From positions 62,001 through 126,000 of the IMG/VR virus record IMGVR_UViG_3300047557_003310: a stretch of 64,000 nucleotides of DNA; one strand, 5' to 3'. How positions within the stretch are numbered: position 1 is the stretch's first letter; every line of letters starts with the position of its first letter. Source of the DNA: a virus. A program made the position numbers and the translations under genes. Of this stretch, positions 10,459 through 52,818 are shown piece after piece. A model generated the notes under the pieces. That model was not told the DNA's origin. It did no database searches and worked only from the letters and a program-made list of their open reading frames with translations.

Positions 10459-10478
10459 TATTTAATTTCAACTAAAAA

Positions 10479-10509
10479 GGGAGAGGATATTTTTGCCTCT
10501 CCCTTTTTT
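10479..10509 (+). terminator. Rho-independent terminator
   Basis: GGGAGAGG pairs with CCTCTCCC over a nine-base loop, followed by six T. A late-type CATAAATA follows at 10527-10534, upstream of the next gene. Confidence 0.9.
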
Positions 10510-12241: not shown

Positions 12242-13216
12242 ATGGATTTGATTGACGACAAATATATTAATCTAATATCAACAAGATTAGAAAAATTCAC
12301 TAAAAAGAATTCAAATCTCTATAATTGTAGATGTAAAATTTGTGGTGACTCTCAGAAAAATAAATCAAGAGCACGAGGATATTTTTATTCTGTAAAAAAT
12401 AATACAAATTACAAGTGTCACAATTGTGGAGTGAATGTATCTTTAAACAATTATCTTAAACAAATAGATCCAATATTACACCAGCAATATTGTTTAGAGA
12501 AGTATTCAGCTGGATTCACCGGTAAAAATTTTACAGCCGAAGCACCAAAGTTTGACTTCAAAAAACCAGTATTCAAAAAAACTTTAAATTTACCAAGAGC
12601 AAGTGAAGTTTCTGTTGCTAAGTCTTATTTAGAAAATCGTAAATTGAATCCAGATAATTTTTATTATGCGGAAAAGTTTAAAGAATGGACAAATACAGTA
12701 CAAAAAACATTTGATGAAAAAGGTTTAAAGTATGAAGAATCTAGGATTGTCATTCCACTTTATTATCAAAAAAAACTAATAGGATTTCAGGGCAGATCAA
12801 TTGGTCCAAGTGAAATTAAGTATATTACAATTATGTTGGAGGAAGATGCTCCAAAGATATATGGATATGATGAAATAAACTTGAACAAATCAGTTTACAT
12901 TATAGAAGGTCCTTTTGACTCCACATTTATTCAAAATTCAGTTGCAATGTGTGGATCCGATTTAAATCTAAAAGATCTAAATATTTCTCACCCAGTATAC
13001 GTCTATGATAATGAACCTAGAAACCAAGAAATTCACAAAAGAATGGAATCTAGAATTGAATCTGGGGATTCAATTGTGATATGGCCAAGTTTAATTAAAG
13101 ACAAAGACATAAACGACATGGTTTTGTCTGGACTTAATGTCCAATCTGTGATAGAATCAAATACTTACTCTGGACTAGTAGCAAAACTTAAATTTAACGA
13201 ATGGAAGAAAGTATGA
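12242..13216 (+). CDS. 61: DNA primase (gp61)
   Basis: 324 residues. Makes RNA primers for lagging-strand synthesis with gp41. An N-terminal zinc finger is visible as CRCKICGD ... YKCHNCG (about 30-64). The Toprim segment IIEGPFDSTFIQ (about 220-231) carries the conserved Glu, followed by PVYVYDNEPRN with the acidic residues. The stop overlaps the nrdA ATG (ATGA). Confidence 0.93.
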   Translation: MDLIDDKYINLISTRLEKFTKKNSNLYNCRCKICGDSQKNKSRARGYFYSVKNNTNYKCHNCGVNVSLNNYLKQIDPILHQQYCLEKYSAGFTGKNFTAEAPKFDFKKPVFKKTLNLPRASEVSVAKSYLENRKLNPDNFYYAEKFKEWTNTVQKTFDEKGLKYEESRIVIPLYYQKKLIGFQGRSIGPSEIKYITIMLEEDAPKIYGYDEINLNKSVYIIEGPFDSTFIQNSVAMCGSDLNLKDLNISHPVYVYDNEPRNQEIHKRMESRIESGDSIVIWPSLIKDKDINDMVLSGLNVQSVIESNTYSGLVAKLKFNEWKKV

Positions 13217-14889
13217 CCGAAGGAATTAGGGTTCAAAAAAGAAATGGCAACATTGAACCATTATATCTTGATAAGATACATTTGATGGTAGAAGAGGCTT
13301 GTAAGAATCTATCTGGAGTCTCTGCTTCTCAAGTTGAAATGCAGTCTGGTATTCAATTTTATAGTGGAATCACTACAGCTGAGATTCAGGAAATTCTAAT
13401 TAGAAGTGCAAGTGATCTTATTGATTTGGAGCACCCAAACTATCAATATGTTGCTGCTAGATTGTTGATGTATGCTACTAGGAAGAGCATCTTTGGTGGC
13501 ATGAAAGATCTACCACACCTAGAAGATCATATCAATAATTGCGTGACTTCTAAAGTATATGATCATGAAGTATATGATCATTATTCAAAAGAAGAAATCG
13601 ATAAGATCAATTCTATGATTGATCACGATCGTGACTTTAACTTCACATATGCAGGACTCAGACAGGTTGTAGATAAGTATTTGGTTCAAGATCGTAGTAC
13701 TGGGAAATTATATGAAACTCCCCAGTTCATGTATATCATGATTGCGCTAACAATGTTTTCTAGGTATCCAAAGGAAACACGCCTATCTTATATAAAAAAA
13801 TATTACGATGCAACATCAAAGCACAAAATCAACATCCCAACCCCAATCATGGCAGGAGTGCGGACGCCACTTCGACAATTTGCTAGTTGTGTTCTTGTTG
13901 ATGTTGATGACACCCTCGATTCTATCTTTAGCAGTGATATGGCTATTGGCAGATATGTCGCACAGAGGGCGGGAATCGGCATCAATGCAGGTAGAATCCG
14001 TGGCATCAACAGTAAAATCAGAGGTGGAGAAGTTCAACACACTGGTGTTGTACCGTTTCTCAAAAAGTTTGAAGCGACTGTCAGATGTTGCACGCAAAAT
14101 GGCATACGAGGTGGATCCGCGACGGTCCACTTCCCCATCTGGCACCAAGAGATAGAAGATATTATTGTTTTGAAGAATAATAAAGGAACTGAGGATAATC
14201 GTGTTCGTAAACTAGATTATTCTATTCAGTTTAGTAAGATTTTTTATGAGAGGTTCATCAAAAATGAAGAAATCACGCTTTTCTCTCCAAACGATGTACC
14301 TGGACTTTATGATAACTTCGGATTACCTACATTTGATGACCTCTATGTATCTTATGAAAATAATCCATCTATTCCAAAGAAAAAAATCAAAGCACAAGAA
14401 CTTATTCTGAATGTTCTCAAGGAAAGAGCAGAAACAGGACGAGTGTATATTATGAACATTGATCATTGTAATTCACATAGTTCTTATAAAGATCAAATTA
14501 CAATGAGTAATCTTTGCGTTGCTGGAGACACAAAGATTAAAGTAAGAATTACTACTGCTAAAGAAGTTGATGGTAATAACACAACAACATACCGTCTTCC
14601 TCCTCTTGAAATTGAAATTCAACAACTTCAAGAATTTATCGAAGAAGGTCTTTCATTGGAATGCGTAGAAGTGCTTTCTAAAAATATTGACTGTGCAAAT
14701 CGTAAAAATGATTATCATCAAATTACCGCATTTGCTCAAACGTCACCTAAAGCAAAAGTAATGAAAATTACTGATGAAAACAGTGGTAACAGTATTGTAG
14801 TCACGCCTGAACACAAAGTATTTACTGAAAATCGTGGATATGTGATGGCGAAAGATTTGAAAGAGACTGATGAGTTAGTAATTAATTAG
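13213..14889 (+). CDS. nrdA: Ribonucleotide reductase alpha subunit, N-part fused to split-intein N-half
   Basis: 558 residues: about 434 of class Ia NrdA followed by 124 of intein. The NrdA part starts with an ATP-cone-like segment (MTEGIRVQKRNGNIEPLYL) and runs to SNL, directly before the conserved Cys of the SNLC motif. The intein starts at Cys (CVAGDTKIKV) and has block B as VVTPEHKVF. Translation then stops. The rest of nrdA is in a second gene 750 bases downstream, so an active reductase should need protein trans-splicing. The ATG at 13213 overlaps the primase stop; an in-frame ATG at 13201 is less likely. Confidence 0.92.
   Translation: MTEGIRVQKRNGNIEPLYLDKIHLMVEEACKNLSGVSASQVEMQSGIQFYSGITTAEIQEILIRSASDLIDLEHPNYQYVAARLLMYATRKSIFGGMKDLPHLEDHINNCVTSKVYDHEVYDHYSKEEIDKINSMIDHDRDFNFTYAGLRQVVDKYLVQDRSTGKLYETPQFMYIMIALTMFSRYPKETRLSYIKKYYDATSKHKINIPTPIMAGVRTPLRQFASCVLVDVDDTLDSIFSSDMAIGRYVAQRAGIGINAGRIRGINSKIRGGEVQHTGVVPFLKKFEATVRCCTQNGIRGGSATVHFPIWHQEIEDIIVLKNNKGTEDNRVRKLDYSIQFSKIFYERFIKNEEITLFSPNDVPGLYDNFGLPTFDDLYVSYENNPSIPKKKIKAQELILNVLKERAETGRVYIMNIDHCNSHSSYKDQITMSNLCVAGDTKIKVRITTAKEVDGNNTTTYRLPPLEIEIQQLQEFIEEGLSLECVEVLSKNIDCANRKNDYHQITAFAQTSPKAKVMKITDENSGNSIVVTPEHKVFTENRGYVMAKDLKETDELVIN
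14515..14886 (+). other. Split intein, N-terminal half (in nrdA)
   Basis: 124 codons starting with the splice-junction Cys (14515-14517). Block A is CVAGDTKI and block B is TPEHKVFTENRG with the TxxH pattern. It ends in a stop after LKETDELVIN, where a continuous intein would carry on. Confidence 0.9.
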
Positions 14890-14894
14890 TATGG

Positions 14895-14948
14895 TAGGAA
14901 GTGTAATTTTGTTATTTTTGATAAATAGTCATGAGATTACACTTCCTA
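14895..14948 (+). promoter_or_regulatory. Inverted repeat with late promoter in its loop, before the GIY-YIG gene
   Basis: A perfect 13-base inverted repeat: TAGGAAGTGTAAT at 14895-14907 and its complement at 14936-14948. The 28-base loop holds GATAAATA (14920-14927), a T4-like late -10 element. The 3' arm ends 2 bases before the ATG at 14951. Long transcripts from upstream can fold and hide the start; a late transcript starting near 14933 lacks the 5' arm. Confidence 0.75.
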
Positions 14949-14950
14949 TA

Positions 14951-15652
14951 ATGAAAACATATATTGTCTATAAAATTACCAATAAGAAAAACGGCAAAAA
15001 TTACATAGGAAAAACTGAATACTCTTTGGAGCATCGTTGGAATCGTCATTTATCGTCAGCAAGAAATGGTTCAAAATTTAGATTTCATTCTGCGATTAGA
15101 AAATATGGTGAAGATTGTTGGGACTTATCTGTGATTGAAACTTATCAAACTGAAGATGAAAACTTTATTAATGAAAAGGAAACTCACTTCATTAAACTCT
15201 TTGAGAGCGATACTAAAGGATATAATGCTACTTCTGGTGGAACTGGTGGTTGGATGCTCCCAAGATGCCCACAGAAAGTCCAGGAAGAGTGGAAAAATGG
15301 TATTTCTACAAGAACTATAGGACACAATAATCCAAATTATTCTGGTTATTCAGATGAAGAATTAATTGAATTTGGTATGAAATTTATTAAAAAATATAAC
15401 TTTATACCTGGACTAAAAAGATTAATTAAATTTTGTAATGACGAGTTGAATGTAAATTTTCCTAAAAGTTTTTCCAAAAATAGATTTGGAGGAAGTAGAA
15501 AAAATTACACTAAATTATTAGAAGAAGAAAGTGGATTGGTATTTGATCCAAATTATAGAACAGTAGAAGAAAGAAAGCTTATTGCCCAAAAGGCATCTAT
15601 AAACTCAACTATTATGTGGAAACAAAGGAGAATTAAAAATGCTAAAGATTGA
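14951..15652 (+). CDS. Free-standing GIY-YIG homing endonuclease between intein halves
   Basis: 233 residues from ATG 14951. The N-terminal nuclease domain shows YIVYKITN and NYIGKTE, the GIY and YIG strands, then the catalytic Arg region (LEHRWNRHL) and a Glu in the INEKETHFI segment. The C-terminal basic part probably binds DNA. Lying exactly between the two halves of a split intein in nrdA, it most likely cuts intein-free nrdA and spreads the interruption. It overlaps the next ORF by 14 bases. Upstream in-frame ATG 14891 is rejected because it lies before the regulatory hairpin. Confidence 0.9.
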   Translation: MKTYIVYKITNKKNGKNYIGKTEYSLEHRWNRHLSSARNGSKFRFHSAIRKYGEDCWDLSVIETYQTEDENFINEKETHFIKLFESDTKGYNATSGGTGGWMLPRCPQKVQEEWKNGISTRTIGHNNPNYSGYSDEELIEFGMKFIKKYNFIPGLKRLIKFCNDELNVNFPKSFSKNRFGGSRKNYTKLLEEESGLVFDPNYRTVEERKLIAQKASINSTIMWKQRRIKNAKD

Positions 15653-15737
15653 ATATCTAGAAGAAGAAATTCCAGTTTATGATATTACGGTAGAAGGAGC
15701 TCATAATTTTTTTGCTAATAATATATTAGTTCATAAT
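15639..15737 (+). other. Split intein, C-terminal half
   Basis: 33 codons ending NILVHN followed by Cys at 15738, the standard C-terminal splice junction (Asn cyclisation, +1 nucleophile Cys). The short length fits natural split inteins, whose C-halves are about 35 residues. Confidence 0.9.
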
Positions 15738-16739
15738 TGTCAAGAAATCACTGAACCTACTACTCCAATTCAACATATTGATGATGACAATTATTCCGAG
15801 ATCGCAACTTGCATTCTTTCTGCGATCAATGTGGGTAGAGTTAAGTCTGATGATGAACTAGAGGAACTCTGTGATCTTACGGTTCGTGCTCTAGATGAAA
15901 TTATTGATTATCAACAATATCCAGTGAAAGCGGCAGAGAATTTCACAAAGCGTCGTAGATCTCTTGGAATTGGATATATTGGTCTTGCTCACTATTTGGC
16001 AAAACTTGGATTTAAGTATGATTCACAAGAAGCATGGGATGCTGTTCATGGTCTTTCTGAGAGCTTCCAATACTATCTTCTAAAGGCATCTAATCAACTT
16101 GCCAAAGAAAAAGGATATTGTGAGTATTTTGGTCGTACTAAGTATTCTGATGGGATTTTACCAATTGATACATACAAAAAAGAAGTAGACGAAATCACAT
16201 CAATTAAACTTCAACATGATTGGGAATCTCTTAGGTCATCTATCCTGGAACATGGACTCAGACACTCAACACTGTCCGCACAGATGCCATCGGAGAGCAG
16301 TTCCGTTGTGTCAAACGCAACCAATGGAATCGAACCACCTAGAGGATACTTGTCCATTAAAAAATCAAAGAAAGGACCACTCAAACAAATTGTTCCACAA
16401 TATCATACTCTTAAAAACAATTATACGCTACTTTGGGACATGGAGTCTAATCGTGGTTATATTAATGTTGTTTCTGTGATGCAAAAGTTCTTTGATCAGG
16501 CAATTTCTGGAAATTGGTCCTATAATCCAGAGCATTATCCAGACAATGAGGTTCCAGTTTCTGTAATGGCGAATGACCTATTGACCACATACAAGTACGG
16601 TCACAAAACCGCATATTATCAAAATACTTATGATATCAAGACCGATGAGGTAGTTGAACATCCAAAACAGGAACTTAATTCGCTTTTAGATGACATTATG
16701 AGTTCAGATGAAAGTGAATGTGAAAGTTGCACAGTTTAA
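15639..16739 (+). CDS. nrdA: Split-intein C-half fused to ribonucleotide reductase alpha, C-part
   Basis: 366 residues: 33 of intein then 333 of NrdA. The intein C-half has block F (VYDITVEGAHNFF) and ends in the canonical HN before Cys. The extein resumes with CQEITEPTTPI, matching the class I motif after SNL, and ends in CESC, the C-terminal Cys pair that glutaredoxin reduces. N- and C-exteins total about 767 residues, a full-length NrdA. AAAGGAG lies 8 bases before ATG 15639, giving it independent translation. Confidence 0.92.
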   Translation: MLKIEYLEEEIPVYDITVEGAHNFFANNILVHNCQEITEPTTPIQHIDDDNYSEIATCILSAINVGRVKSDDELEELCDLTVRALDEIIDYQQYPVKAAENFTKRRRSLGIGYIGLAHYLAKLGFKYDSQEAWDAVHGLSESFQYYLLKASNQLAKEKGYCEYFGRTKYSDGILPIDTYKKEVDEITSIKLQHDWESLRSSILEHGLRHSTLSAQMPSESSSVVSNATNGIEPPRGYLSIKKSKKGPLKQIVPQYHTLKNNYTLLWDMESNRGYINVVSVMQKFFDQAISGNWSYNPEHYPDNEVPVSVMANDLLTTYKYGHKTAYYQNTYDIKTDEVVEHPKQELNSLLDDIMSSDESECESCTV

Positions 16740-16772
16740 TTTGTTTAAATAATCAATGTGATGGAGACTAGT

Positions 16773-17951
16773 ATGGAATTTAAAATTTCTTCAGTTGAAG
16801 AAGAAACTAAAATTAAAGGTATGACTGTTTTTAATACAGAAAAAGTTAATACGAAAAAACAACCAATGTTTTTTGGTCAGCCATTAGGAGTTCAAAGATA
16901 TGATTCATACAAGTATCCAGTTTTTGATAGACTCACCACACAACAACTAGGTTATTTCTGGAGACCCGAAGAGGTCTCTCTCCAAAAAGATCGTGGTGAC
17001 TATCATACTCTTCGTCCTGAACAGAAACATATCTATACTTCTAATTTGAAGTATCAGATCATGTTAGATTCTGTTCAAGGTCGTGGACCTGGTATGGCAT
17101 TTATTCCATATTGTTCACTTCCTGAGTTGGAAGCATGTATGGAAGTATGGGGGTTCATGGAGATGATTCATAGTCGCTCATACACATACATTATTAAAAA
17201 TGTATATTCAGACCCAACAGAGGTCTTTGATACTATTATCGGTGACGAACGCATTCTAGAGCGTGCTAGGAGCGTCACAGAGTCTTATGATGATTTTATT
17301 AATTCAGCACAAATTTATGGTACATCTACTGATTGGATGTATAGACTTGAAGGAGTCACAAACGCAAAGGAAACACTCAACGATGTTAAACGAAAACTCT
17401 ACAGAGCAGTCGCAAATGTTAATATTCTTGAAGGTATTCGCTTCTACATTAGCTTTGCTTGTAGTTTCGCTTTTGGCGAACTTAAGCTCATGGAAGGATC
17501 CGCTAAAATCATCTCACTTATTGCAAGAGACGAAAACCAACACTTAGCACTTACTCAAAACATTCTGAATAAATGGAAAGAAGGTGACGATCCAGAAATG
17601 CAAAAAATTGCAAAAGAAGAGGAAGAATGGGTTTATAAAATGTTTGATCGTGCCGTAAACGAAGAAAAGAAGTGGGCAGATTATCTGTTCAAGGATGGCA
17701 GCATGATCGGACTTAACGATAAACTTCTTCAGCAATATGTTGAATGGATTGCAAATCGTCGCATGAAAGCAATTGGTCTTAAGCCAGTTTATGATATTCC
17801 AGCAAAAAACAATCCACTTCCTTGGACCGAACATTGGATTTCTTCCAAAGGACTACAAGTCGCTCCACAAGAAACGGAGCAGGAAACATATATTGTCGGT
17901 GGACTGAAACAAGACATGAAAGAAGATACATTTGCTAGCTTCAAATTGTAA
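16773..17951 (+). CDS. nrdB: Ribonucleotide reductase beta subunit
   Basis: 392 residues. Carries the diiron-tyrosyl radical that starts ribonucleotide reduction in NrdA. Diiron ligand segments are visible: ELEACMEVWGFMEMIHS and DENQHLALTQN. The start at 16773 has TGGAG 6 bases upstream; in-frame ATG 16761 is possible. It follows nrdA by 33 bases. Confidence 0.95.
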   Translation: MEFKISSVEEETKIKGMTVFNTEKVNTKKQPMFFGQPLGVQRYDSYKYPVFDRLTTQQLGYFWRPEEVSLQKDRGDYHTLRPEQKHIYTSNLKYQIMLDSVQGRGPGMAFIPYCSLPELEACMEVWGFMEMIHSRSYTYIIKNVYSDPTEVFDTIIGDERILERARSVTESYDDFINSAQIYGTSTDWMYRLEGVTNAKETLNDVKRKLYRAVANVNILEGIRFYISFACSFAFGELKLMEGSAKIISLIARDENQHLALTQNILNKWKEGDDPEMQKIAKEEEEWVYKMFDRAVNEEKKWADYLFKDGSMIGLNDKLLQQYVEWIANRRMKAIGLKPVYDIPAKNNPLPWTEHWISSKGLQVAPQETEQETYIVGGLKQDMKEDTFASFKL

Positions 17952-17955
17952 TTTA

Positions 17956-18005
17956 AAACTGAGGTTGAATGTTATATAAATAAATATAACATTCAACCTC
18001 AGTTT
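17956..18005 (+). promoter_or_regulatory. 22-bp perfect inverted repeat with central late promoter
   Basis: The arms are 17956-17977 and 17984-18005, perfect over 22 bases with a 6-base loop. TATAAATA at 17975-17982 covers the apex. The 3' arm ends 3 bases before the endonuclease ATG at 18009. As RNA this hairpin would shut the start codon and might also end nrdB transcripts; a late transcript would begin near 17988, inside the 3' arm, and escape it. Confidence 0.85.
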
Positions 18006-18008
18006 CAA

Positions 18009-18527
18009 ATGGATAATTATATTCTTTATTATTATTTAAGGGAGGACTTTAGTTCTCCCTTTTATGTTGGTTATGGTAAACCAAGAAGAATACACGCAAA
18101 GCATTTGAGAAGTAATGGGGCAAATCTATTGCCATCAAGAGAAAGAAGATGGATCGTAAAATCTGGATTAACTAAACAAGAAGCAATAGAACTTGAAGTA
18201 AAGCACATAGCACTTTGGAAAAGAGAATGTGATGGTGGAGTTTTATTAAATCAAAATCTTGGTGGAGAAGGAAAACCAGGAGGACAAAAAACTAAAGGAT
18301 TTAGTGGTAGAAAACATAGCGAAGAAAGTAAAAAGAAAACTTCATTAAAAGTTGCTGGTAAAAATAATCCAAGAGCAAAGAAATATATCTTCATTTCTCC
18401 AGATGGTAAAAAATACATTATAGAAGGTGGTGTTAAAAAGTTTTGTAAAGAAATAGGAATAACTTATGATGCGGTTTTAGGAAAGAAGAGCAAGAATACA
18501 AAAGGTTGGACTATATTAAACGCATAA
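18009..18527 (+). CDS. Homing endonuclease-like protein (degenerate GIY-YIG, NUMOD DNA-binding)
   Basis: 172 residues. YILYYYL ... PFYVGYGKP reads as a divergent GIY-YIG pair, followed by an Arg-rich helix and ELEVKHIALW with the expected Glu. SGRKHSEESKKKTS is a NUMOD3-type DNA-binding module. The end (ISPDGKKYIIEGGVKKFCK ... KGW) is like the C-terminal helix-turn modules of GIY-YIG endonucleases. It separates nrdB from a head-like gene, and its start lies directly behind the inverted repeat. Confidence 0.8.
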   Translation: MDNYILYYYLREDFSSPFYVGYGKPRRIHAKHLRSNGANLLPSRERRWIVKSGLTKQEAIELEVKHIALWKRECDGGVLLNQNLGGEGKPGGQKTKGFSGRKHSEESKKKTSLKVAGKNNPRAKKYIFISPDGKKYIIEGGVKKFCKEIGITYDAVLGKKSKNTKGWTILNA

Positions 18528-23089: not shown

Positions 23090-23392
23090 ATGCCAAAAGA
23101 AACTAGAACTTATGCTGATCGTAGAGAAGCAAACAAAGCAAGCGTTATTAAACGACGCAAGCAAAACAAACTTCTTTTGGTAGAATATAAAGGTGGCAAG
23201 TGTGAAAGATGTGGATATGATAAGTGCGTCTCTGCCTTAGAATTTCATCATCTCGACCCCACTACCAAGGAAACTAAAAACCTTGGGACCACCGCTGCCA
23301 TCGAAAAACAGAAGGCAGAAGCAGATAAATGTATTCTTGTATGTGCTAACTGCCATCGAGAAATACATTACGAACAATATAATGGGGTGTAG
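23090..23392 (+). CDS. HNH homing endonuclease inside the tRNA cluster
   Basis: 100 residues. A basic N-terminus (RRKQNKLLL) precedes a zinc-bound HNH fold: CERCGYDKC, then FHHLDP and CANCHREIH. It lies between tRNA-Gly and tRNA-Asn, and its last 10 bases are the first bases of tRNA-Asn, an arrangement expected of an endonuclease that settled next to a conserved tRNA target. Confidence 0.9.
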   Translation: MPKETRTYADRREANKASVIKRRKQNKLLLVEYKGGKCERCGYDKCVSALEFHHLDPTTKETKNLGTTAAIEKQKAEADKCILVCANCHREIHYEQYNGV

Positions 23393-40813: not shown

Positions 40814-41431
40814 ATGTCTAAAAGAAAGACTATTTATGGTGTCGGTATAAATGATGCCAACTATCCAGTAAAACCAAGAATATCTGGGACAAACCAAAGA
40901 ATATCTTGTCCTTTTTATTTGAGGTGGAAAGAAATGATACGAAGATGTTATTCTGAAAAAGAACATTTAAGAAATCCAACTTATAAAGATTGTAAAGTTG
41001 TGGATGAATGGAAATATTTTTCTAACTTCAAATCTTGGATGGAAGTGCAAGATTGGGAAGAAAAACATTTAGATAAAGATATACTTGTTCCTGGAAATAA
41101 AACATATGGACCAAATACTTGTATCTTTGTTGAAGATAAGATAAATCTTTTACTTGTTAAGTGTGATTCCAAAAGAGGGAAATATCCTCTTGGTGTTTCT
41201 CCAGCAATAAGAGGTAATAAAACTTACTACCAGTCGCATATGGGTAGAAAGTATCTTGGATTTTTTGATAATATTTTTGAAGCACACCAGTGTTGGCAAG
41301 TAGAAAAATCTAATCATATTAAAGAAGTTGCATTACTTCAAACTGATGAGATATTAAAGAATGCACTTTTGGAAATATCCAATAAGTTGATGAAAGATTA
41401 CAATACTAATACTGAAACTAAAACATATTGA
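40814..41431 (+). CDS. HNH-type homing endonuclease-like protein
   Basis: 205 residues. Motif series WKEMIRRCYSEKEHLRNP, CKVVDEWKYFSNFKSWM, LDKDIL and NTCIFV is a phage HNH-like family I recognise. A C-terminal repeat-like segment (GVSPAIRGNKTYYQSHMGRK) resembles an AP2-type DNA-binding module. Inserted between the porin and the head-like gene at 41464. Confidence 0.82.
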   Translation: MSKRKTIYGVGINDANYPVKPRISGTNQRISCPFYLRWKEMIRRCYSEKEHLRNPTYKDCKVVDEWKYFSNFKSWMEVQDWEEKHLDKDILVPGNKTYGPNTCIFVEDKINLLLVKCDSKRGKYPLGVSPAIRGNKTYYQSHMGRKYLGFFDNIFEAHQCWQVEKSNHIKEVALLQTDEILKNALLEISNKLMKDYNTNTETKTY

Positions 41432-44181: not shown

Positions 44182-44568
44182 ATGACAAAAGGCAGAAAAA
44201 AAGGACTGTGTATAAAAACTTACATTGCTCGTCCTGATGGAACAGTTTGGTCGCAAACCAAATATAAATGTACTAAACTAAATCCATCAAAACATTATAA
44301 AAAAGAATATTTACAGTTTGATATGTTTATTGATGGAAAGAGAGTTAATAAACAGGTACATAGATTTATAGCAGAACAATTGCTACCAAATCCAGATCCA
44401 GAAAACTTAACTGTTGTTGATCATATCAATAGAAATAGAACTGATAATAGATTAGAAAATTTAAGATGGTCAACGAGACAAGATAATTGGTATAACTTTG
44501 AACTTTCTATTGAAAAATCTATTGAAACATTAGAAAGAGCGGGTTATACTATAATACCCCCTCAATAA
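44182..44568 (+). CDS. HNH homing endonuclease
   Basis: 128 residues. KQVHRFIAEQLLP, VVDHINRNRTDNRLENLRW is the HNH_3 signature with the catalytic DH, N and N residues. A short N-terminal beta part (ARPDGTVWSQTKYK) leads in. Inserted between hli and the peroxiredoxin gene. Confidence 0.92.
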   Translation: MTKGRKKGLCIKTYIARPDGTVWSQTKYKCTKLNPSKHYKKEYLQFDMFIDGKRVNKQVHRFIAEQLLPNPDPENLTVVDHINRNRTDNRLENLRWSTRQDNWYNFELSIEKSIETLERAGYTIIPPQ

Positions 44569-52203: not shown

Positions 52204-52818
52204 ATGAATGTGAAATATACTGAGGACGATAAAAAACTTTGGGAGAAAATGTATTTGTCTGGTCTTTCTTCTTATGAGATTTCCAGACAATTAAAAGTTC
52301 CAAAACCAACGGTATATAAACACATAAAATCTTGTGATATTTCTAGAAATTGGTCGGAATGGCAAATAGGAAAAGAACCTTGGAATAAGGGAGTAAAAGG
52401 AGCACAAGTATCTTGGAATAAAGGATTAACCAAAGAAACTGATGAAAGAGTTAGAAAATATGGTGAAAAGTTAAAAGGAAATAACTATCAAAATCCTTGG
52501 AGCAAAAGATATTTCGATGTGGATTATTTGTATTTGGTTATTGTTTATCTTGAGGGTAAATTGGTTTATAAGGTGGGTAGAAGTTTTAATAAGTTATCAA
52601 ACCACACTAAAAATAAATTACATAGTGTAATTAAAATATGGAAAGGAATACATTATCAAGTACATCACCTTGAAAAGTTCATTCATCAAAAATATCAAGA
52701 TTATAAAATTGATTTTGAGACCACGGACAGTGGATATACGGAGTGTTATGTGGTAGAATTACCCATAACTGAAATCATCAACCTTACAGAAAAAACATTA
52801 AAACATTATGATTACTAA
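52204..52818 (+). CDS. Homing endonuclease-like protein downstream of psbA
   Basis: 204 residues. N-terminal helix-turn-helix (SGLSSYEISRQLKVPKPTVY, about 19-38), NUMOD3-like PWNKGVKG/SWNKGLTKETDERV, then LYLVIVYLEGKLVYKVGRS, which resembles the T5orf172 branch of the GIY-YIG fold. As with the S-PM2 psbA endonuclease (recalled), it may cut intronless psbA and help move the introns. Confidence 0.75.
   Translation: MNVKYTEDDKKLWEKMYLSGLSSYEISRQLKVPKPTVYKHIKSCDISRNWSEWQIGKEPWNKGVKGAQVSWNKGLTKETDERVRKYGEKLKGNNYQNPWSKRYFDVDYLYLVIVYLEGKLVYKVGRSFNKLSNHTKNKLHSVIKIWKGIHYQVHHLEKFIHQKYQDYKIDFETTDSGYTECYVVELPITEIINLTEKTLKHYDY

What the first reader, a model, noticed from the sequence alone, without database searches (positions are those of the whole stretch)
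14895..14950. Hairpin with late promoter in its loop controls the nrdA-embedded endonuclease
A perfect 13-base inverted repeat brackets GATAAATA and ends 2 bases before the ATG. Transcripts reading through nrdA would fold over the start; late transcripts would lack the 5' arm. This mirrors T4 I-TevI control.
Basis: partly seen in the sequence, partly recalled or inferred. Interest (0 to 1): 0.75.

Follow-up and report, generated by a model that had tools for sequence, protein, structure and literature searches.

The report
Late-switch hairpin for homing endonuclease
A cyanobacterial virus carries a selfish DNA-cutting gene inside a split nrdA gene, and a conserved RNA hairpin with a late promoter in its loop probably keeps that gene silent until late in infection, a trick known from phage T4 but found here in a new setting and twice in one operon.

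Summary
The hairpin is real. Arms 14895-14907/14936-14948 form a perfect 13-bp repeat, GATAAATA lies in the loop, and the stem ends two bases before ATG 14951. The window holds 3 such repeats where shuffles average 0.125. The host gene is a split intein: NrdA-N+IntN, a GIY-YIG endonuclease gene, IntC+NrdA-C. In uncultured viruses the stem is kept in 39 distinct leaders with compensatory changes; NATAAATA is intact in 38 of 39. Three distinct endonuclease-free copies of the intein lack the element, so it travels with the endonuclease. In silico the hairpin closes the start on read-through RNA; RNA from the loop promoter is unstructured. The virus encodes a gp55-like late sigma factor. Across seven cyanophage genomes both late motifs and read-through-only structure are enriched at homing-endonuclease genes. 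The logic matches T4 I-TevI and Aeh1 mobE, with one tested difference: the buried start region has no Shine-Dalgarno sequence. No transcript start or translation effect was measured.

The parts
13201..14889 (+). NrdA N-part plus intein N-half (IntN 14515-14886, stop 14887-14889)
   Evidence: Pfam reductase domains and Intein_splicing (E 5e-7, below its cut-off); NCBIfam intein_Nterm over its cut-off; NrdJ-1 intein in PDB
14895..14907 (+). 5' arm of the hairpin
   Evidence: perfect inverted repeat; paired in 39 aligned leaders with compensatory changes
14920..14927 (+). GATAAATA, predicted T4-type late promoter in the loop
   Evidence: NATAAATA in 38 of 39 leaders; motif 45 on + and 8 on - strand of the record; gp55 homologue
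14931..14936 (+). inferred start of the late transcript
   Evidence: inference: about one helical turn after the TATA box (PMC2988020, passage); not mapped
14936..14948 (+). 3' arm, two bases before the ATG
14951..15652 (+). GIY-YIG endonuclease gene (HEG1), 233 aa
   Evidence: Pfam GIY-YIG E 3e-12; NCBIfam group I intron endonuclease over its cut-off; I-TevI catalytic domain in PDB; dN/dS 0.09-0.28
15639..16739 (+). intein C-half (15639-15737) plus NrdA C-part; AAGGAG before its ATG; start overlaps the end of HEG1
   Evidence: NCBIfam intein_Cterm over its cut-off
16758..17951 (+). nrdB (start codon uncertain)
   Evidence: Pfam Ribonuc_red_sm
17956..17977 (+). 5' arm of the second hairpin
   Evidence: 22-bp stem, -33.4 kcal/mol, z -8.9; 8 of 14 pairs counted with two-sided changes in 31 leaders
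17975..17982 (+). TATAAATA, predicted late promoter of the second hairpin
17984..18005 (+). 3' arm of the second hairpin, three bases before the ATG
18009..18527 (+). HEG2: endonuclease-like gene with NUMOD3 motif, 172 aa
   Evidence: Pfam NUMOD3; PHROGs homing endonuclease family as second match

Best explanation
The element is a late-only expression switch that belongs to the endonuclease gene and is inherited with it. Transcripts that enter from upstream through nrdA carry both arms, fold the hairpin and bury the bases just before the ATG, so ribosomes do not start the endonuclease. Late in infection the gp55-type polymerase starts inside the loop; that RNA begins after the 5' arm, cannot fold, and is translated. 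NrdA-N+IntN and IntC+NrdA-C have starts of their own, so ribonucleotide reductase can be made early by trans-splicing while the nuclease stays off. Shown: the sequence element, its conservation with compensatory changes, its absence from three distinct endonuclease-free copies of the intein, a late sigma factor homologue, and predicted folding. Inferred: the transcript start, read-through by earlier transcripts, the effect on translation, trans-splicing and nuclease activity.
For: Perfect arms around the late motif and next to the ATG. 39 distinct leaders: 96.4% of cells paired, 3 pairs with two-sided changes, 0 of 500 shuffles reach the covariation score. NATAAATA in 38 of 39; the one leader that lost it (L077) has a frameshifted endonuclease. 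Endonuclease-free mini-inteins lack the element. Opening cost of the start region 17.3 kcal/mol higher on read-through than on late RNA, 0 of 1000 shuffles; the late RNA folds at 0 kcal/mol. gp55-like factor in the record. A second hairpin of the same design with another sequence, covarying in 31 leaders. Enrichment at endonuclease genes in seven genomes. Same logic described for I-TevI, segB and mobE (PMC2988022, PMC3014915, passages).
Against: No Shine-Dalgarno sequence in the buried arm: only GAG about 16 nt from the ATG, none for HEG2, so the T4 picture of a hidden ribosome-binding site does not carry over literally. The upstream stop codon is 0-6 nt before the 5' arm in 38 of 39 leaders, so ribosomes ending NrdA-N may loosen the stem. 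Late motif plus structure also occurs at some genes without an endonuclease match (1 of 184 at 15 kcal/mol or more, 12 of 184 at 8 or more), and three of six cultured relatives of HEG2 show no such repeat. The HEG1 leaders are closely alike and the two-sided changes are 4 cells; one slid control has as many. No expression data.
Confidence: 0.8

Rival explanations
1. Translational coupling: ribosomes that finish NrdA-N+IntN at the foot of the stem unzip its base and allow some endonuclease translation from nrdA mRNA, so that the dose follows nrdA translation as well as late transcription.
For: The IntN stop codon lies 0-6 nt before the 5' arm in 38 of 39 leaders and 3 nt inside it in one; the nrdB stop is 4 nt before the second hairpin.
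Against: The stem is longer than a terminating ribosome would cover (inference), and neither this rival nor stop-codon placement needs a late promoter in the loop, which is conserved. The placement may only reflect how the cassette sits in the gene.
Confidence: 0.1
2. DNA-level operator: the repeat is a binding site by which the endonuclease represses its own late promoter, as I-TevI does.
For: I-TevI binds an operator over its late promoter (PMC2988022, passages); HEG1 matches the I-TevI catalytic domain.
Against: The leader is not more like the mini-intein linker or the intein-less nrdA joint than shuffled sites (8 comparisons). One-sided changes are more often G-T than A-C (13 to 8 cells in A1 leaving out pair 18-45, and 28 to 6 in A3), as RNA pairing on the + strand would allow; these are cells, not events. 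Operator and hairpin do not exclude each other.
Confidence: 0.05
3. Structure that helps translation, as in T4 genes 38 and 25: the stem brings an upstream Shine-Dalgarno sequence close to the ATG.
For: This mechanism exists in T4 (PMC3014915, passages), and the stem base lies right by the ATG.
Against: I see no conserved Shine-Dalgarno sequence just before the 5' arm in the 40 leaders listed. The AGGAAG in the 5' arm is itself paired and is lost in L077 while pairing is kept.
Confidence: 0.03
4. Intrinsic terminator or RNA processing site that separates nrdA-N from the rest.
For: A long stem between two cistrons; Aeh1 mobE mRNA is processed at an RNase E-like site (PMC2988022, passage).
Against: No T run after either arm. 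It would not explain the conserved late motif in the loop or the fixed distance to the ATG. Processing in addition is not excluded.
Confidence: 0.02

Closest known systems
T4 I-TevI hairpin and late promoter control (also I-TevII, I-TevIII, segB), PMC2988022 passages
   Same: Late promoter just upstream of a homing endonuclease, so placed that late RNA lacks the 5' part of a hairpin which closes the start on RNA from earlier promoters; GIY-YIG catalytic domain related to I-TevI.
   Different: T4 cases of the I-Tev genes lie in group I introns and bury a consensus Shine-Dalgarno sequence; here the host is a split intein and the buried region has none. No operator likeness found.
Aeromonas phage Aeh1 mobE inside nrdA (Gibb and Edgell 2007, 2009; not held, known through PMC2988022 and PMC3653736 passages)
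   Same: Homing endonuclease gene splits nrdA into two ORFs and has a late promoter with an inhibitory hairpin.
   Different: mobE is an HNH enzyme; PMC3653736 calls the split an insertion of mobE without a self-splicing intron. Here intein halves flank a GIY-YIG gene.
Fractured genes with split inteins and an endonuclease gene between them (Dassa et al. 2009; not held, cited in PMC3653736 and PMC10448857 passages)
   Same: Split intein in nrdA; PMC3653736 says 7 nrdA genes interrupted by inteins were reported in ocean metagenomes.
   Different: I could not read that paper, so whether any of its loci is this one, or carries a leader hairpin, is not known to me.
T4 gene e (lysozyme) leader, PMC3014915 passages
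   Same: Late promoters within the sequence of an inhibitory stem; long early RNA closed, late RNA open.
   Different: Not a mobile gene.

Membership tests
I-TevI / mobE type late-only control of a homing endonuclease | Hairpin over the start region on read-through RNA, absent from late RNA | tested here: met
   in silico only:
I-TevI / mobE type late-only control of a homing endonuclease | Late promoter motif between 5' arm and start, with a late sigma factor in the phage | tested here: met
   promoter activity not measured
I-TevI / mobE type late-only control of a homing endonuclease | Buried Shine-Dalgarno sequence | tested here: not met
   none within reach of the ATG for HEG1 or HEG2
I-TevI / mobE type late-only control of a homing endonuclease | Read-through RNA is made early and is poorly translated; late RNA is translated | not testable with these tools
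   needs RNA mapping and reporters
I-TevI / mobE type late-only control of a homing endonuclease | Operator like the homing site (I-TevI only) | tested here: not met
   no likeness above shuffles; the true homing site is unknown
Split-intein (fractured) gene with an endonuclease gene in the gap | Intein N- and C-halves on separate ORFs with the endonuclease gene between | tested here: met
Split-intein (fractured) gene with an endonuclease gene in the gap | Protein trans-splicing | not testable with these tools
   needs expression of both halves
GIY-YIG homing endonuclease | GIY-YIG domain over the curated cut-off | tested here: met
   Pfam 47.2 against 22.6 bits; NCBIfam TIGR01453 61.3 against 56.05 bits
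GIY-YIG homing endonuclease | Endonuclease-free alleles of the same site exist | tested here: met
   L152, L154, L155, L174
GIY-YIG homing endonuclease | Cuts an endonuclease-free allele and is copied into it | not testable with these tools
   needs cleavage assay and mixed infection

The most novel reading that the evidence does not exclude
Cyanomyovirus homing endonucleases carry a portable timing cassette, a late promoter placed in the loop of its own translation-blocking hairpin, which stays with the nuclease gene, arose more than once with unrelated sequences, and works without a Shine-Dalgarno sequence by closing the bare start region. In the split nrdA gene it also keeps ribosomes off the IntC start early, with the upstream stop codon at the stem base as a possible second input.
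Probability: 0.45. Interest if true: 0.6.

Novelty: new variant of a known kind. Interest (0 to 1): 0.47.

Why it matters
It carries the I-TevI and mobE control logic to cyanophages and to a split-intein gene, where RNA splicing cannot be the reason for keeping the nuclease silent. A worked-out reason in T4, protecting folding of the host intron (PMC2988022, passages), does not apply here, so the locus could separate that reason from protection of the early host gene or avoidance of early cutting. The two nrd leaders and the endonuclease-free mini-inteins are ready-made material for such tests.

Tried and rejected
N-terminally extended endonuclease (ORF start 14891, or TTG 14909 after AGGAAG): rejected. 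Most relatives have an in-frame TAA at the end of the 5' arm; the longer frame exists in the window because its loop is 2 nt longer.

Mini-ORF in the late leader with a TAATG overlap: not conserved; lost in L007, L010, L021 and L049.

Operator resembling the homing site: no likeness above shuffles.

Hairpin used elsewhere without this endonuclease: an exact 23-mer scan of viral contigs gave 71 stretches. The script examined 67 of them; 65 encode this endonuclease and 2 end within 7 codons of the ATG with its first residues. The other four (L003, L026, L040, L041) are endonuclease loci.

Host-gene diversity: all loci with readable flanks are nrdA at the same intein site, so movement between genes is not shown for HEG1. 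A profile scan for more distant relatives listed 80 loci, mostly known contigs; I did not analyse them further.

Cultured relatives of HEG2: by eye three of six (MA01, S-CREM2, B23) have an inverted repeat around the late motif and three (S-SRM01, S-N03, RN05-S) do not. By opening cost only B23 is high (9.0; S-CREM2 5.5, MA01 2.9, S-SRM01 2.2; the other two have no motif in range).

Dropped before counts: A1 holds 39 distinct leaders from the loci and the window; leaders cut by contig ends were left out and loci first seen were not added. A3 holds 31 distinct leaders from L300-L375; of the 80 loci, L376 and L379 lack the gene start, and L377 (no hairpin) and L378 (motif present, stem not visible in 75 nt) are distant. 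In the genome scan the terminal pieces of W01, W02 and W05 were not fetched. HEG2 was lost at a stretch edge and put back. The first cost scan (32 start-motif pairs, some starts counted twice) used a shorter upstream stretch; the HNH gene at 40814 scored -0.7 there and 7.9.

Literature: I found no description of such a leader at a split-intein gene, which cover the held library only. Gibb and Edgell 2007 and 2009 and Dassa 2009 are not held.

Full report
Observation. The window has a perfect 13-bp inverted repeat, 14895-14907 and 14936-14948, with 28 nt between the arms. GATAAATA lies at 14920-14927 and the ATG of an open frame at 14951. Only three perfect repeats of 13 bp or more with loops of 3-60 nt occur in the 64 kb, against a mean of 0.125 in 40 dinucleotide shuffles. 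One of the other two (10474) has A and T runs like a terminator; the third, at 17956, turned out to be a second case of the same design.

Context. The host gene is a split intein. ORF 13201-14889 is the NrdA N-part plus an intein N-half, and ORF 15639-16739 is an intein C-half plus the NrdA C-part. Pfam shows the reductase domains and, below its cut-off, Intein_splicing on both sides. NCBIfam models for the intein N- and C-terminal splicing regions are over their cut-offs, and the N-half matches the solved NrdJ-1 intein. Between the halves lies a 233-aa GIY-YIG protein, over the cut-off of the NCBIfam group I intron endonuclease subfamily, with the I-TevI catalytic domain as its match among solved structures. 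The window is part of a 132,824-base virus record related to Synechococcus T4-like phages.

Conservation. A scan of uncultured viral contigs gave 80 loci with this endonuclease. Those with readable flanks are nrdA at the same intein site. Among phage records 204 matched, none at 60% identity or more and none covering 80% of the query. Thirty-nine distinct leaders align around the ATG. The stem is paired in 96.4% of cells; three pairs show two-sided changes (L008, L014, and L077 at two pairs) and others show G.U changes; no shuffle of 500 reached the covariation score. Sliding the partners by one to three columns drops pairing to 39-48%, though one slid version has as many two-sided changes. 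NATAAATA is intact in 38 of 39: 36 TATAAATA, one GATAAATA (the window), one CATAAATA. The exception, L077, has TATAACTA, and its endonuclease frame is broken. The endonuclease is under purifying selection, dN/dS 0.09-0.28 in 13 comparisons.

The element belongs to the endonuclease. Four contigs (three distinct sequences: L152, L154=L155, L174) hold the same nrdA intein as one uninterrupted mini-intein; they have no endonuclease, no hairpin and no NATAAATA in the printed linker. The 71 stretches with an exact 23-mer of the leader are followed by this endonuclease or end at once (four of them known).

Folding. Read-through RNA forms the hairpin (-23.6 kcal/mol). An RNA starting at 14932 has no predicted structure (0 kcal/mol). 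T4 late promoters start about one helical turn downstream of the TATA box (PMC2988020, passage), which puts the start just before the 3' arm. The extra cost of opening the start region on read-through RNA is 17.3 kcal/mol, and none of 1000 shuffles that keep the promoter reached it. NATAAATA is described as the late promoter of cyanophages (PMC2984593, passages). The same record has a gp55-like late sigma factor and carries NATAAATA 45 times on the + and 8 times on the - strand. Nucleic-acid metabolism genes are called middle genes in cultured cyanomyoviruses (PMC7238727, passages); nrd itself was not named there.

A second case. At 17956-17977 / 17984-18005 a 22-bp stem (-33.4 kcal/mol, z -8.9) holds TATAAATA at 17975-17982 and ends three bases before the ATG of a 172-aa NUMOD3 protein placed after nrdB. 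PHROGs links this protein to a homing endonuclease family as its second match. The two stems share no sequence that I can see. Of 80 loci, 78 have the start of the gene, giving 45 distinct leaders, two of them distant and without a clear stem. In 31 distinct leaders, 8 of 14 pairs have two-sided changes, 27 cells in all, and no shuffle of 500 reached the covariation score.

How general. In the own record and six cultured cyanophages, 37 of 1633 non-overlapping ORFs carry GIY-YIG, NUMOD3, HNH_3 or HNH matches. A NATAAATA 19-60 nt before an ATG occurs at 24 of 37 of these and 184 of 1596 others (Fisher 8e-14). Among those with the motif, the read-through-minus-late opening cost is higher at endonuclease genes (median 4.6 against 1.25; Mann-Whitney 1.4e-4; within-genome permutation 2e-4), also without the two nrd genes (3.45; p 9e-4). 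A cost of 15 or more occurs at 2 of 24 endonuclease genes, both in this window, and at 1 of 184 others. So the feature is enriched, graded and not exclusive. Labels came from four Pfam families, so some of the 'others' are probably unlabelled endonucleases.

Differences from T4. Reviews describe the same control for I-TevI, I-TevII, I-TevIII, segB and Aeh1 mobE (PMC2988022 and PMC3014915, passages). There a consensus Shine-Dalgarno sequence about 8 nt before the ATG of the I-Tev genes is buried. Here the 3' arm has none. The AGGAAG in the 5' arm pairs with the start region and is not kept in L077, where pairing is. The record is poor in such sites in general: 102 of 162 ORFs have at most 3 matching bases. 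I therefore call it a new variant of the known control, not a plain member.

What stays open. The upstream stop codon lies 0-6 nt before the 5' arm in 38 of 39 leaders, and 4 nt before the second stem. This may only reflect how the cassette sits, or it may let terminating ribosomes loosen the stem. The transcript start, the read-through RNA, translation, trans-splicing and cutting were not measured.

Noticed in passing
   Followed up: yes
44182-44568: HNH_3 endonuclease gene with TATAAATA 31 nt upstream and the third-highest opening cost in the first scan (8.2 kcal/mol, 7 of 1000 shuffles as high).
   Followed up: partly
23090-23392, 40814-41431, 52204-52818: Three more endonuclease-like genes (HNH or endonuclease families) with late motifs upstream; opening cost 4.0, 7.9 and, 1.1 kcal/mol.
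   Followed up: partly
L152, L154, L155, L174: The same nrdA intein as an uninterrupted mini-intein without endonuclease: natural empty forms of the split locus.
   Followed up: yes
L077, L078: Endonuclease frameshifted and late motif changed to TATAACTA, while the stem is still paired through two-sided changes: decay of gene and promoter together.
   Followed up: partly
14951-15652 and relatives in alignment A2: The endonuclease family has two kinds of C-terminal end (with and without a 7-residue block ending in STIMW or similar), as if the C-part had been exchanged.
   Followed up: no
10475-10508: Perfect repeat with A run before and T run after, like a two-way terminator.
   Followed up: no
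L387, L388, L389: In MA01, S-CREM2 and B23 a terminator-like stem is nested inside the larger repeat, upstream of the late motif.
   Followed up: no
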